In this document: positions 31,419 through 36,396 of the stretch, in pieces
Position numbering within the stretch: position 1 is the first letter of the stretch
How the letters are laid out: every line of letters begins with the position of its first letter
From: Gemmatimonadota bacterium
GTDB taxonomy: Bacteria; Gemmatimonadota; Gemmatimonadetes; Palauibacterales; Palauibacteraceae
NCBI GenBank assembly: GCA_021295785.1
Contig: JAGWBR010000018.1
Coordinates: 1 to 64,000, forward strand
Reading direction: 5' to 3'
Length of the DNA: 64,000 nucleotides
Notes under the pieces: generated by a model
What the model was told of the DNA's origin: nothing
Database searches by the model: none
What the model saw: only the letters and a program-made list of their open reading frames with translations
Translations under genes and position numbers: made by a program

Positions 31419-31900
31419 TCACCCACACTTAGAGCATGAACGGGCTGAGAGGGAGAGCGTGATGCGAGGGGCGAAGGGAGGGATGTGGGTGCGTCCGAGC
31501 CACCTGCGGACGACGTTTCCGTTCTTGGACTTGACCAGCGCGTTGTCGTTGGAGCGCCGGGGTCTGGACTTGGTGAACTGGCCAACGTGGAGCTTGTTCA
31601 GCAGGCGGGCGACCCGGTGGTTGACGTACTCGGTTCCGTTGTCGGCATGGAAGCCCAGAACCCGGAAGGGGAACGCGGTGACGAGGGCCTCGAGCACGGG
31701 CACGAGGAAGTACTGCAAGCTGTTGGTACTGGGTCACTTCGTCGACCATGTTGATTACGAACACCCCCTTCCCGCCGTCGCGGTCGCCGGAGTGCACGGT
31801 GTCGAAGCGCACGAAGCCGGGGCGGCCCTGAGGGCGGGGCTTGCCGCGCACGCCGATGGAGGAGGGCGCGGCGCACGAAGCGCTCGTCTCCAAAACTTCG
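31419..31900 (-). pseudogene. Integrase-core transposase remnant (IS481/IS3-like DDE), frameshifted
   Basis: Two frames carry pieces of one DDE integrase. The upstream part (about 31900-31730) reads GRPGFVRFDTVHSGDRDGGKG then VINMVDEVTQYQ. The downstream part (31718-31419) reads FLVPVLEALVTAFPFRVLGFHADNGTEYVNHRV, then LHVGQFTKSRPRRSNDNALVKSKNGNVVRR. About 6-10 residues are missing at the junction, and neither the full N-terminus nor the C-terminus is present. The first two acidic catalytic positions (DTVH, HADNG) survive; the Glu expected near ALVKSKNG is Lys. It is a dead insertion-sequence relic. I could not define terminal inverted repeats. Confidence 0.75.
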
Positions 31901-32057
31901 TGCTGGCGTCGCAGGATCTCCTGTGGACGCCGGAACCGCCCGCCACCGCCTGATGGCTACGCGGCATCACTGCTCTGGACCCGCCGGCGAGGGAGCCGGA
32001 TCGAGAAGGTGCTGAAAGCGGCCCCCCGGGCGCGCAGCGCCCGTCCACAACAGTCAG

Positions 32058-32087
32058 TTGCGCGTGGCGGCCAGCTTCCACTATGAT
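32058..32087 (+). promoter_or_regulatory. Candidate promoter of the LRR gene
   Basis: TTGCGC (32058-32063) and TATGAT (32082-32087) are spaced 18 nt apart, giving a leader of roughly 85 nt before the ATG at 32181. The rest of the gap between the integrase relic and this gene shows no coding signal. Confidence 0.45.
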
Positions 32088-32180
32088 GGTCTCACACCGT
32101 CCGGGTGCCCTCCGCAGCACTCTCATCACCGCAGCGCGGGATGCCGGGCTCAAACCTCAAGTCAATTCAAGGAGAACAAC

Positions 32181-34300
32181 ATGACCAACCCCAAGCACCT
32201 CAAGCCATCCGTCGTTGCGCTGGTGGCCCTGGCGGTCGGCGGCGGTTGCGGCGACCCGGTGGATCCGGTCGGGGGCGTGGTTCCGGCCGGGGCCGTGGTT
32301 GCGGAGAATGCCAGAGACAATGATTGGCCGATCGGACAGCGCGAGGTGTTGGATTCCGTCTACTCGAAGACGGGCGGGAAAAGATGGAACGACAACACCA
32401 ACTGGCTGACAGACGAACCGCTCGACGAATGGTACGGCGTGTCCGCGGACGCTAAGGGAAACGTCTTGGGGCTGAACCTGGGCGACAACGGGCTGACGGG
32501 CTCGATCCCGGCCGAACTCGGGGATCTGAGGAGCCTGACGGAGCTCCATCTCTCCGACAACGACCTCACTGGCCCGATTCCGGCTGAACTCGGGGATCTG
32601 GATAGCCTGACGGATCTCCACCTCTCCGACAACGACCTCACTGGCCCGATTCCGGCTGAACTCGGGGATCTGGACAGCCTGACGGATCTCCATCTCTCCG
32701 ACAACTACCTCACGGGCCCGATTCCGGCTTACCTCGGGGATCTGGAGAGCCTGACGGATCTCCGGCTTCACGGCAATAGCGGACTGAGAGGTCCGCTTCC
32801 CAACGCCCTGGCCGGGGTGCCCCTTAACACGTTCCTCTGGTACGACACTGGTCTCTGCGCGCCCACCGACGCGCGTTTCCAGGCGTGGCTGGATTCGATT
32901 TCAGACGAACAGGGGGCACTGGACTGCGGGGACCGCTGGGTATTGCATTTGTTCTACGGGGATACGGACGGGGAGAATTGGGACAACAACACCAACTGGC
33001 TGACGGACGAACCGCTCGGCGACTGGTACGGCGTATCCGCGGACGCTCAGGGAAACGTCACCCGGCTCAGCCTCGTCAACAACAACCTCACGGGCTCGAT
33101 CCCGGCCGAACTCGGGGATCTGGAGAGCCTGACGGAGCTCCATCTCCCCAGCAACGACCTCACGGGCTCGATCCCGGCCGAACTCGGGAATCTGGAGAGC
33201 CTGATAGGGCTCTTGCTCCAGGGTAATAGCGGACTGAGAGGTCCGCTTCCGGATTATATCCATCTCTCCGACAACGACCTCACTGGCTCGATCCCGGCCG
33301 AACTCGGGGACCTGGAGAGCCTGACGAAGCTCAACCTCTCCTACAACAGCCTCACGGGCTCAATCCCGGCCGAACTCGGGAATCTGGCGAGCCTGACGCG
33401 GCTCAGCCTCTACAACAACGACCTCACGGGCTCGATCCCGGCCGAACTCGGGAATCTGGAGAGCCTGACGGCGCTCAGCCTCTTCAGCAACGGCCTCACT
33501 GGCTCGATCCCGGCCGAACTCGGGAATCTGGAGAGCCTGACGCGGCTCAGCCTCTCCGACAACTACCTCACGGGCCCGATTCCGGCTGAACTCGGGAACC
33601 TGGAGAACCTGACGGCGCTCAGCCTCTTCAACAACGGCCTCACTGGCTCGATCCCGGCCGAACTCGGGGACCTGGAGAGCCTGACGGCGCTCAGCCTCTA
33701 CAACAACGACCTCACGGGCCCGGTCCCGGCCGAACTCGGGAATCTGGAGAGCCTGATAGGGCTCTTGCTCCAGGGTAATAGCGGACTGAGAGGTCCGCTT
33801 CCGGGACACCACTCTACGTCTTTTACTGGTACCTCACCGGTCTTTGCGCGCCCACCGACGCGGCTTTCCAGGAGTGGCTGGATTCGATACCGGCCGAAAT
33901 CGGGGGACCGAACTGCGGGGACCGTTCGGTGTTGGAGGTATTCTACGGGGCTACGGACGGGGAGAAGTGGAACGACAACACCAACTGGCTGACGGACGAA
34001 CCGCTCGGCGACTGGTACGGCGTATCCACGGACGCTCAGGGAAACGTCCTCGCGCTGGACCTGGGCGACAACGCGCTCACGGGCTCGATCCCGGCCGAAC
34101 TCGGGAATCTGGAGAGCCTGAGTTCGCTCTTGCTCCACGGCAATAGCGGACTGACCGGTCCGCTTCCCAACGATCTGACCGGGACGCCCCTCCACACGTT
34201 CCACTGGTACGACACGGGTCTCTGCGCGCCCACCGACGCGGCTTTCCAGGCGTGGCTGGATTCGATTCGAGACGAACAGGGGGCGGGGGATTGTTCATGA
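32181..34300 (+). pseudogene. Leucine-rich-repeat lipoprotein, broken by a frameshift
   Basis: GGAG precedes ATG 32181. The start is a lipoprotein signal (VALVALAVGGGC, lipid Cys about residue 23). Three modules follow, each opening with a cap such as NDNTNWLTDEPL..WYGVSADA, then 24-residue plant-type LRRs (LTGSIPAELGxLxSLTxLxLxxN), then a closing unit GNSGLRGPLP...DTGLCAPTDAxFQAWLDSI. About 14 LRRs are present. At 33802/33803 the closing unit of module two lacks 13 nt present in its two homologues. The frame then runs out at 33992, while the natural continuation reads on in another frame to 34300. Intact, it would be a surface binding protein of about 700 residues. Confidence 0.75.
32480..33790 (+). 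repeat. 72-nt tandem repeats encoding LRR units
   Basis: The DNA repeats with a 72-nt period built on a near-identical core encoding LTGSIPAELG. Units differ mainly at the variable L-x-x-L positions (HLSDND, SLYNND, SLFSNG). At about 33246 a closing unit is joined directly to the middle of an LRR (GPLPDYIHLSDND), which looks like unequal recombination within the array. Confidence 0.8.
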
Positions 34301-34723: not shown

Positions 34724-34735
34724 GCTAACGTTAGC
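34724..34735. repeat. Perfect 12-bp palindrome over the OsmC stop codon
   Basis: GCTAACGTTAGC is its own reverse complement and covers the TAA stop of the minus-strand gene. No T tract follows, so it is not an obvious terminator; an operator or chance are both possible. Confidence 0.3.
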
Positions 34736-35189
34736 TGATGTCAGCCGACCAGGTGATTTCGACGGAGTCCTTCAGAGTCTGGGCCATGGGGCACTTTGCC
34801 GCATGTGTCTGCAGGGCCCGGTTTACCTTGTCTTTCGGAGCGCCGTCAGGCAGCCTGAGCGTGTAGTCCACGTGGATCCTGGTCAGCACGACGACCCGGT
34901 CCACCAACTCGTTGATTCCCTCGGCAGAAGCCCTGATGGCTTCCGGCGGCATCGAGATCCCGCGCACCTCCAGTGCGCCGTTGAGTGTACCGAGTAGTCA
35001 AGCAGCGGCGGCGGCCACCAGGTGATCAACCGGCAGCGCCAAGTCTGGTTCGTCGGTAAGTCCAAAATGCTGTTTGACGGGGCCGTGAACACCAAAGTCC
35101 ACCTCCCAGCGATCCGCCAGCGTGGCCCGGCGGTGGACTCCCGCAACCTTGGCGACGCTCGAACGCGCCGTGTATACCGAATCTGTCAT
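34731..35189 (-). CDS. OsmC/Ohr-family peroxidase, probable selenoprotein (Sec64 encoded by in-frame UGA)
   Basis: OsmC-family enzymes reduce organic hydroperoxides with a Cys pair. From ATG 35189 (GGAAGGGA upstream) the frame reads MTDSVYTARSSVAK to LPVDHLVAAAAA, meets TGA at 35000-34998, and continues in the same frame as LLGTLNGALEVRG to TAA at 34731. The TGA falls exactly where the family has its peroxidatic Cys (AAxxCLxGTL), residue 64. The second conserved Cys is intact (Cys133 in HAAKCPMAQTL), and the total of 152 residues is normal. Sequence after the UGA is well conserved, so the gene does not look decayed. With the hairpin at 34962-34978 this fits Sec insertion; an ordinary nonsense mutation of TGC/TGT to TGA is the alternative. 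selA, selB and selC are not in the window. Confidence 0.75.
34962..34978 (-). promoter_or_regulatory. Bacterial SECIS-like hairpin downstream of the in-frame UGA
   Basis: On the minus strand GCGCAC-TGGAG-GTGCGC forms a perfect 6-bp stem with a 5-nt loop. The stem begins 19 nt and the loop 25 nt after the UGA. The second loop base is G. Published bacterial SECIS models ask for a stem of at least 4 bp, an apical loop about 16-37 nt from the UGA and a G in the first two loop positions, all met here. It lies inside the coding sequence, as bacterial SECIS elements do. SelB binding is inferred. Confidence 0.6.
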
Positions 35190-35250
35190 TGTGATCCCTT
35201 CCGTTTTGGTCTCGAAAACCGTGGTCCGCAAGGTACCGGTCGCTGGGGCC

Positions 35251-36396
35251 TCAGCGCAGGCCGTCGGCGCGGGTGAGCGAACCCAGTTGCCTGGCTCCCG
35301 ATGCGCCGGTCGCCCAGGACGCGTTTCCGGGGTACCCGAGCACATGTTGCCGCGCCAGCAAGGCGAAGGCAACGGCCTCCCGGGAATCCCCGTCGGCCCC
35401 CAACGCAGACAGGCGGCGAAACTCAGTCTGAGGGGCCAGTGCGGCCAGGCGACCTGCCAGAGCCGGGTTGTTGGCTCCGCCGCCGCACAGATAACAGGTG
35501 CTCGCTTCAAACGGGATCCACCGGTACGACTCGGCAATCGTTCGCGCCGTCAACTCCGTGAGCGTGGCGACCAGATCCTCCGTGGTCAGCCCGGCAAACC
35601 GGGTCAGCCAGTCCCGCAGACGGTCTCCGCTGAACCGTTCTCGCCCGGTGGTTTTCGGGGGCGGCAGCGCGAAGTATGGGTCGTCGAGCCAGTAATCCAG
35701 CGCCGGCCGTGACACGGCCCCCGCCGCGGCGATCTTCCCGCCGTCGTCGTAGCGCAGCCTGCCGCCCGTGAGTGTTTCCACCGCACCGTCCAGGAGGGCC
35801 ACGCCGGGACCGGTGTCGAAGGACTGTGGCGTGGTGTCGCTGGTGTCCGCCGACCCAGGGAGCGCGGTCACGTTGGCGATCCCGCCGATGTTCTGAACAA
35901 GCCGGGCCTCTTCGCCCTGGAACAAGAGCCAGTCGGTATGGGCCGTGAGCGGGGCACCGTGGCCGCCGGCCGCCATGTCCCGGGTCCGGAAGTCAGAAAC
36001 GACGTCGCAACCCGCGACCTCCGCGATTACCGAGGCCTGCCCGATTTGGAGCGTGGCGCCCGCTTCTTCACCGGCGGGTGGAATGTGCCATACCGTTTGG
36101 CCGTGACTCCCGACGGCGGCCACCTCACCCGCACTGACGCCGGCAGAGTCAAGGACATCCAACACGGCCTGGCCGATCTGGTGGCCGAGTTCAAAGTCGA
36201 GCGCGCACAGGGCGGCGGCCGAGCCAGACTCGATGGCATTCCGGATCTGGGCACGGGTCTCCGCCGCGTAGGCCGACGTCGCGAATTCCACCAGACGCCA
36301 CCGGTCGGGGCGCTCGCCCGTGCCCTCGATCTCGACCAGCGCCACATCGATTCCGTCCAGCGACGTCCCGGACATCACTCCGACCCATAGGGTCAA
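35251..36396 (-). CDS. anmK: Anhydro-N-acetylmuramic acid kinase
   Basis: AnmK phosphorylates and opens 1,6-anhydro-MurNAc during peptidoglycan recycling. The start GVMSGTSLDGIDVALVE is the family signature. GSHGQTVWH, DFRTRDMAAGGHGAPL, NIGGIANVT and FDTGPGVALLD follow, and near the C-terminus CGGGANNPAL. It has 381 residues. The gene lies between a lipoprotein gene and the OsmC-type gene on the same strand, and its presence supports a peptidoglycan-containing diderm. Confidence 0.95.
   Translation of the reverse strand: MTLWVGVMSGTSLDGIDVALVEIEGTGERPDRWRLVEFATSAYAAETRAQIRNAIESGSAAALCALDFELGHQIGQAVLDVLDSAGVSAGEVAAVGSHGQTVWHIPPAGEEAGATLQIGQASVIAEVAGCDVVSDFRTRDMAAGGHGAPLTAHTDWLLFQGEEARLVQNIGGIANVTALPGSADTSDTTPQSFDTGPGVALLDGAVETLTGGRLRYDDGGKIAAAGAVSRPALDYWLDDPYFALPPPKTTGRERFSGDRLRDWLTRFAGLTTEDLVATLTELTARTIAESYRWIPFEASTCYLCGGGANNPALAGRLAALAPQTEFRRLSALGADGDSREAVAFALLARQHVLGYPGNASWATGASGARQLGSLTRADGLR

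What the first reader, a model, noticed from the sequence alone, without database searches (positions are those of the whole stretch)
34731..35189. OsmC-family peroxidase with UGA replacing the peroxidatic cysteine plus a bSECIS-like hairpin
Seen: an intact 152-codon frame interrupted only by TGA at 35000-34998, at the site of the family's peroxidatic Cys (AAAAA-x-LLGTL). The partner Cys133 is conserved, and a 6-bp stem with a 5-nt loop (34978-34962) starts 19 nt after the UGA with G in the second loop position. Known: Sec commonly replaces catalytic Cys, and OsmC-like selenoproteins have been reported from environmental genomes. Inferred: this is a functional selenoprotein that standard gene callers would split into two fragments. 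A random nonsense mutation would not be expected to hit this one codon and come with a fitting hairpin.
Basis: partly seen in the sequence, partly recalled or inferred. Interest (0 to 1): 0.88.

Follow-up and report, generated by a model that had tools for sequence, protein, structure and literature searches.

The report
Selenocysteine OsmC peroxidase, Gemmatimonadota-type
A small bacterial antioxidant-type gene that looks broken by a stop codon is very probably a selenium-containing protein: the same "stop" and the RNA hairpin that recodes it recur in its close relatives, and none of those read has ordinary cysteine there.

Summary
Confirmed. The 152-codon OsmC frame (minus strand, 35189-34731) is broken only by TGA at codon 64; a 6-bp/5-nt hairpin starts 19 nt later. 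In 60 genomes (own plus 59 relatives) 56 of 58 matches carry one in-frame TGA. Of 468 GTDB stretches the tool returned 80; all 80 have TGA at this column. The hairpin is complete in 79 of 83 distinct sequences, with concerted codon swaps that keep pairing, and its synonymous sites are nearly frozen. The genome has tRNA-Sec(UCA), SelA, SelB and SelD, while TGA ends the neighbouring anmK. The predicted fold is OsmC/Ohr; the partner Cys133 is conserved. OsmC-like selenoproteins are known since 2005. New here is the clade: centred on Gemmatimonadota, no Cys form seen, two paralogous groups, far below NCBI's curated Sec-OsmC cut-off (four of six members 20-30 bits against 95, two unmatched). Likely a Sec/Cys hydroperoxide reductase; substrate and reductant are inferred.

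The parts
34731..35189 (-). osmC-like selenoprotein gene (152 aa with Sec64; stop TAA)
   Evidence: PF02566 54 bits; group A/B relatives with TGA in 36 of 60 genomes, own included
34998..35000 (-). UGA codon 64, read as selenocysteine, in the column of the family's reactive Cys
   Evidence: TGA in 80 of 80 named loci read; column aligns to Cys of T. thermophilus OsmC 1ukk
34962..34978 (-). bSECIS-like hairpin GCGCAC-UGGAG-GUGCGC, 19 nt after UGA
   Evidence: 79 of 83 distinct sequences keep all six pairs; synonymous sites nearly frozen; concerted codon swaps at 72/75
34791..34793 (-). Cys133 codon, presumed resolving cysteine (CP motif)
   Evidence: invariant in 25 of 25; 79 of 80 unique genes, the other unreadable there (X)
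35195..35202 (-). Shine-Dalgarno-like GGAAGGGA, 5 nt before the ATG
   Evidence: read by eye from the sequence
35251..36396 (-). anmK (anhydro-N-acetylmuramic acid kinase), upstream neighbour on the same strand; ends in TGA, so TGA is a normal stop here
   Evidence: PF03702 324 bits

Best explanation
The gene encodes a functional selenoprotein of the OsmC/Ohr superfamily. UGA 64 is decoded as selenocysteine by SelB and tRNA-Sec(UCA), directed by the hairpin just downstream inside the coding sequence (supported by conservation and by the presence of the machinery; Sec insertion itself not shown). Sec64 sits in the central helix where OsmC/Ohr enzymes carry the peroxidatic Cys. It most likely reduces an organic hydroperoxide to the alcohol, becomes a selenenic acid, and is resolved by Cys133 as a selenenylsulfide, which a cellular dithiol then reduces (inferred from Ohr/OsmC chemistry; a lipoylated protein is the likeliest donor). 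The gene belongs to a clade in which every copy read here uses Sec.
For: Single TGA in an otherwise intact frame. 56 of 58 matches in 60 genomes have exactly one TGA; of the two without, one is a fragment that begins after the Sec site and one a canonical Cys OsmC. TGA in 80 of 80 named loci read. Every row listed by the search of 395 phylum genomes has one TGA (152 genomes matched, list cut by the tool). Hairpin: 79 of 83 complete, slid controls pair 3-66% of cells against 96%; shuffling the 3' arms gives at most 62 complete stems of 83 in 1000 trials (related rows can exceed such shuffles without structure); residues 72/75 change together as A-V, V-A, A-A so that pairing is kept. Mean relative codon entropy 0.17 in the six hairpin codons against 0.67 in 45 other conserved columns, p 0.0006; the one freely varying site is the last loop base. 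selA, selB, tRNA-Sec TCA and selD in the genome. AlphaFold model mean pLDDT 95.7; the 50 listed Foldseek hits are OsmC/Ohr or, for 1ml8, described only as structural genomics.
Against: No protein or RNA measurement and no reads. Three relatives with the TGA gene lack part of the machinery: G036 (no tRNA-Sec and no SelB over cut-off), G033 (no SelB), G016 (no tRNA-Sec); all are draft genomes. Four of 83 distinct sequences, all group B, break the standard stem. Local MFE is no better than shuffles. The catalytic Arg and Glu of Ohr could not be mapped with certainty. The model was built with Cys for Sec and as a monomer.
Confidence: 0.93

Rival explanations
1. A nonsense mutation or sequencing error split an ordinary Cys OsmC gene.
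For: A lone in-frame stop is what such a gene would show.
Against: The same codon is TGA in 80 of 80 named loci read, from many separate assemblies; protein conservation continues past it; silent sites in the hairpin are nearly frozen.
Confidence: 0.01
2. The organism reads UGA generally as an amino acid (a variant code).
For: Would also leave the frame open.
Against: TGA ends anmK beside it and is the terminal stop of 24 of 30 group-A genes read; the long ORFs nearby (886, 611 and 635 aa) are open under table 11; a full Sec system is present.
Confidence: 0.01
3. A selenoprotein of OsmC fold whose job is not peroxide reduction, for example sulfur or selenium transfer or another thiol exchange.
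For: The clade is far from characterised OsmC/Ohr (12-20% identity to PDB hits; long branch to the ten Cys rows in the tree). The Glu after the conserved Pro of 1ukk is not kept; D55 lies one residue on. A different Cys OsmC-family protein also exists in the genome.
Against: Sec and partner Cys occupy the two redox positions of the family, and the predicted fold is OsmC/Ohr.
Confidence: 0.2
4. UGA is a regulated stop: a 63-residue product is the real one and read-through is incidental.
For: Sec insertion is usually inefficient (recalled).
Against: The downstream 88 residues are under protein-level constraint, with invariant residues as far as P134 and W147; the 63-residue part lacks half the predicted fold and Cys133.
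Confidence: 0.02

Closest known systems
OsmC-like selenoproteins of the Sargasso Sea and GOS metagenomes (PMC1088965, PMC2398784)
   Same: OsmC-like protein (COG1765/PF02566) with Sec in a redox motif and, for Sargasso, a predicted bSECIS (figure-legend and table passages seen)
   Different: Listed with 3 and 5 Sec sequences and motif UxxT; here Thr is at +4 (ULLGT, UMLGT, ULTGT).
NCBIfam NF041052 OsmC_like_Se
   Same: OsmC-related (seleno)protein, aligned over the C-terminal two thirds
   Different: Of six clade members scored, four reach 20-30 bits against a cut-off of 95 and two have no match at E 0.001; 0 of 200 phylum genomes hold a match over the cut-off
Canonical OsmC / Ohr peroxidases (E. 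coli OsmC 1nye/1qwi, X. fastidiosa Ohr 1zb9/4xx2, Ohr with dihydrolipoamide 6ebg)
   Same: Predicted fold; positions of the reactive and the resolving residue against 1ukk
   Different: Sec instead of Cys; 12-20% identity in the listed hits; GVH motif and invariant H35, D55 and H129
Type C Sec-OsmC of the same phylum (L237-L244)
   Same: OsmC-family protein with in-frame TGA at the reactive site and a hairpin after it (folded for one, read by eye in the others)
   Different: Another sequence type: motif UTSMT/UMSMT and a different stem (UCGCGC...GCGCGA)

Membership tests
OsmC/Ohr superfamily (PF02566) | Profile match over the gathering score | tested here: met
   54 bits against 27.5
OsmC/Ohr superfamily (PF02566) | OsmC fold | tested here: met
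   pLDDT 95.7; the 50 listed Foldseek hits are OsmC/Ohr (1ml8 described only as structural genomics), TM by query up to 0.78
OsmC/Ohr superfamily (PF02566) | Two redox residues, reactive and resolving Cys | tested here: met
   Column 64 (Sec) and Cys133 align with the two Cys of 1ukk
OsmC/Ohr superfamily (PF02566) | Catalytic Arg and Glu (Arg19, Glu51 in X. fastidiosa Ohr, passages) | tested here: inconclusive
   R20 and D55 are invariant, but their equivalence is a guess from spacing; D55 aligns one residue off; no coordinates were available
OsmC/Ohr superfamily (PF02566) | Organic hydroperoxide reduction | not testable with these tools
   needs enzyme assay
Bacterial selenoprotein | In-frame UGA conserved at a redox site across species | tested here: met
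   80 of 80 loci read; 56 of 58 matches
Bacterial selenoprotein | bSECIS hairpin shortly after UGA with G in the first two loop positions (rule recalled) | tested here: met
   4 of 83 exceptions
Bacterial selenoprotein | selA, selB, selC, selD in the genome | tested here: met
Bacterial selenoprotein | Cys homologues at the Sec column | tested here: met
   canonical OsmC, e.g. L073 PEELIAAAHAGCF and 1ukk; none among the clade members read
Bacterial selenoprotein | Sec in the product | not testable with these tools
   needs 75Se labelling or mass spectrometry
NCBIfam NF041052 OsmC_like_Se | Score over the curated cut-off of 95 bits | tested here: not met
   six members scored: 20.1-29.6 bits in four, no match at E 0.001 in two
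Sargasso/GOS OsmC-like selenoproteins | UxxT motif as printed | tested here: not met
   U-L-L-G-T, Thr at +4; published sequences not available

The most novel reading that the evidence does not exclude
An obligately selenium-dependent OsmC clade, with two paralogous groups in many Gemmatimonadota, that acts as a lipoyl-dependent selenoperoxidase tied to 2-oxoglutarate dehydrogenase: a gene cluster typed as its E1 subunit lies divergently upstream in 20 of 80 loci on several branches of the clade, often with a conserved ~70-aa four-cysteine protein directly before osmC. In this reading the chemistry cannot revert to Cys, and the SECIS RNA has in turn steered the protein sequence (residues 72 and 75 change in concert).
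Probability: 0.25. Interest if true: 0.7.

Novelty: new variant of a known kind. Interest (0 to 1): 0.5.

Why it matters
A gene finder under the standard code splits this gene (one search lists its halves in separate ORFs), and the curated Sec-OsmC model does not cover the clade, although 36 of 60 genomes examined carry it. It shows Gemmatimonadota, a largely uncultured phylum, using selenium for an OsmC-type enzyme with no Cys stand-in seen inside the clade. The hairpin is a clean case of an RNA signal and a protein sharing codons, with residues 72 and 75 exchanged together so that base pairing survives. A clade with no Cys form makes the question of what Sec can do that Cys cannot directly testable.

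Tried and rejected
Considered and rejected: nonsense mutation or sequencing error (80 of 80 loci read have TGA); general recoding of UGA (TGA ends anmK, and 24 of 30 group-A genes); hairpin significance by MFE alone (z -0.39), dropped in favour of covariation and codon entropy. Contig foreign to the genome: unlikely but only moderately tested. After its own copy the window's ribonucleotide reductase has 15 of the 16 same-genus genomes as its 15 best hits by score, at 70-72%; the 16th (G004) gave only fragments; other genomes reach 66-70% over long stretches and up to 76% over partial ones, so the margin is small (my note says 16, the recount gives 15).

Led nowhere or limited: the neighbourhood analysis gave no conserved partner for the window's own gene (anmK upstream here). 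The paper search for selenoprotein with Gemmatimonadota gave six listings, none about this by title and start of abstract; in the Palauibacterales paper the only 'selen' hit is an author name in the references. A scan of the window for other TGA-interrupted frames with a strict hairpin gave four hits including this one; the other three look like no known protein by eye and were not searched. In one search the 45 control columns include the TGA column itself (entropy 0), which works against the reported difference.

Only 80 of 468 confirmed GTDB stretches were returned; the other 388 were not read. The weak hits were not read one by one.

Full report
What is there. On the minus strand, 35189-34731, an ATG-to-TAA frame of 152 codons is interrupted once, by TGA at codon 64 (35000-34998). 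A hairpin GCGCAC-UGGAG-GUGCGC lies at 34978-34962, 19 nt after the UGA, with G in the second loop position. Taken alone the hairpin is only suggestive: 22 of 1469 TGA triplets in the window (both strands, this one included) are followed by a strict hairpin of this kind and 167 of 1469 by a looser one, and the folding energy is ordinary for the composition (z -0.39).

The family. Read through, the protein matches Pfam OsmC with 54 bits, cut-off 27.5. AlphaFold gives mean pLDDT 95.7 (Cys in place of Sec, monomer, 38 sequences). The 50 listed Foldseek hits in the PDB (61 at E 0.001 or better) are OsmC/Ohr proteins at 12-20% identity, one of them (1ml8) described only as structural genomics. In the profile alignment to T. 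thermophilus OsmC (1ukk) the Sec column falls on that protein's first Cys and Cys133 on its second.

Conservation of UGA. In 60 genomes, the window's own and 59 relatives, 37 have a match, 58 matches in all; 56 have exactly one TGA inside. The other two are a fragment that starts after the Sec site (L072) and a canonical Cys OsmC of G045 (L073). So 36 of 60 genomes carry the TGA type; 21 of these 36 hold two matches, one of each of two groups, A (48-64% to the window's protein, 99% for its own copy) and B (35-42%). I read 30 group-A genes, all 30 TGA at the same column, and 17 of the group-B genes, all TGA. In named GTDB contigs the tool confirmed 468 stretches and returned the best 80; all 80 have TGA at the column and no second stop in the aligned stretch. 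Some of these are the same genes as in the G-handle set. In 395 genomes of the phylum 152 have a match at E 0.001, and every listed row carries one TGA (the list was cut by the tool, and the weak hits were not listed). Most named loci are Gemmatimonadota MAGs; five are labelled Acidobacteria or Acidobacteriota (L115, L119, L120, L122, L129). L096/L097, labelled Deltaproteobacteria, and L151, labelled Gammaproteobacteria, sit among near-identical Gemmatimonadota copies in the tree and are probably misbinned.

The RNA element. Of 83 distinct 48-mers (127 sequences), 79 form all six pairs; 96% of cells are paired, against 3-66% when the frame of pairing is slid along. Shuffling the 3' arms among sequences gives on average 53 and at most 62 complete stems in 1000 trials; relatedness alone can beat such shuffles, so this is support, not proof. 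The codons of residues 72 and 75 occur as GCA/GTG (60), GCG/GCG (15), GTG/GCA (3), GCG/GTG (1, a G-U pair) and GCC/GCC (4, the group-B lineage that breaks this stem). So Ala-Val, Ala-Ala and Val-Ala exchange together and keep the pairing even when the protein changes. Across 80 unique genes the six hairpin codons have mean relative codon entropy 0.17, against 0.67 for 45 other conserved columns (Mann-Whitney p 0.0006); five of the six are nearly fixed, and the free one, Glu74, has its third base at the last loop position. The 45 include the TGA column itself.

The machinery. The window's genome (2.18 Mb, 36 contigs, 85% complete) has a tRNA-Sec with anticodon TCA (78.6 bits; ARAGORN), SelB (295 bits), SelA (465 bits) and SelD (247 bits), each over its family's cut-off. 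Of the 36 genomes (of 60) with a TGA gene, 34 have SelB over the cut-off and 34 have tRNA-Sec over the cut-off; G036 lacks both, G033 lacks SelB, G016 lacks tRNA-Sec. Of the 24 others 19 have SelB and 19 have tRNA-Sec (tallied by hand). So the machinery is common in the group and its presence alone would not single out this gene. TGA is an ordinary stop elsewhere: it ends anmK next door and 24 of 30 group-A genes.

How it most likely works. Seen: the frame, the conserved UGA, the hairpin, the machinery genes, the predicted fold, the partner Cys (invariant in 25 of 25; 79 of 80, the last unreadable). Inferred: SelB delivers Sec-tRNA at UGA 64; Sec64 attacks a hydroperoxide; Cys133 resolves the selenenic acid; a dithiol reduces the selenenylsulfide. 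This follows X. fastidiosa Ohr, where Cys61 reacts, Cys125 resolves and a lipoylated protein reduces (passages of PMC5962072), and a PDB entry of Ohr with dihydrolipoamide (6ebg). In 20 of 80 loci a gene cluster lies divergently upstream whose one typed member is the E1 subunit of 2-oxoglutarate dehydrogenase; in 15 of these a Cu-oxidase_4-type gene lies between (clusters by BLAST, one member of each typed). These loci are spread over several branches of group A (for example L123, L153, L146, L133/L126, L110, L094 and a 15-row clade), but the window and its genus mates do not show it. It is a hint towards lipoyl enzymes, no more. R20, H35, D55 and H129 are invariant and are candidates for the active site; I could not place them in space.

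Evolution. In a maximum-likelihood tree of 135 rows group A is one side of a fully supported branch, and no Cys row falls inside A or B (only ten Cys OsmC rows were included, and the bootstrap had not quite settled; B is not shown to be one clade). The window's protein lies in a supported clade of 42 rows (100/95), six of them labelled Longimicrobiales, and not with its own genus, which sits elsewhere. Genus mates are at 49-57% identity while others reach 68-70%. The contig itself probably belongs to the genus: its ribonucleotide reductase has 15 of 16 same-genus genomes as its 15 best hits, at 70-72%, though the margin over other families is small. Transfer and differential loss of paralogues are both possible.

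Compared with what is known. OsmC-like selenoproteins were reported from the Sargasso Sea (3 sequences, UxxT) and GOS (5, UxxT) (passages seen) and are listed in reviews of 2022 and 2026 (passages). The present clade has Thr at +4. NCBIfam's NF041052 scores it 20-30 bits in four members and finds no match at E 0.001 in two, cut-off 95, and 0 of 200 phylum genomes exceed that cut-off. Listings for OsmC with selenoprotein or selenocysteine, for selenoprotein with Gemmatimonadota, and for Palauibacter showed no description of it in the held open-access library; subscription papers and preprints were not searchable. A third Sec-OsmC type (UTSMT/UMSMT) occurs in eight further genomes I read.

Verdict. 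Almost certainly a genuine selenoprotein, of an already known kind, but in a distinct clade with no Cys form seen and outside the curated model. Interest moderate.

Noticed in passing
L237-L244 (genomes G045, G184, G119, G118, G151, G193, G154, G067): A third OsmC type of the phylum also has in-frame TGA at the reactive site (UTSMT/UMSMT) with its own hairpin UCGCGC...GCGCGA (folded for one, read by eye in the others); a separate gain of Sec in OsmC is possible.
   Followed up: partly
22 of 75 GTDB loci with at least 300 nt upstream, e.g. L128:4784-4999, L113: A conserved ~70-aa protein with four cysteines (GLCxxCxHHRvtGNRRGSrFYLC...YPPLPVxxCxGfE) lies directly upstream of osmC; the one tested has no Pfam match. 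Not seen upstream of the window's gene.
   Followed up: partly
20 of 80 GTDB loci, e.g. L113:979-3909, L091; 15 with the middle gene: Recurrent order: 2-oxoglutarate dehydrogenase E1-type gene divergent, Cu-oxidase_4 gene, often the small Cys protein, then osmC(Sec). One member of each cluster was typed.
   Followed up: partly
window 34731-35189: The window's copy groups away from its own genus, suggesting transfer or differential paralogue loss.
   Followed up: partly
L057-L060, L069 (group B): Group-B genes of one lineage break the standard stem; whether they use another hairpin was not settled.
   Followed up: partly
window 32058-34300: Leucine-rich-repeat protein whose reading frame appears to shift near 33900-34000 into a second ORF that continues the repeat (by eye).
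   Followed up: no
window 31419-31953: Looks like an integrase/transposase fragment (by eye).
   Followed up: no
G036, G033, G016: Genomes with the TGA osmC gene but without a detected SelB and/or tRNA-Sec; draft assemblies, cause unknown.
   Followed up: no
L245 (G000:C25): The same genome carries a separate OsmC-family protein with Cys at the reactive site.
   Followed up: partly
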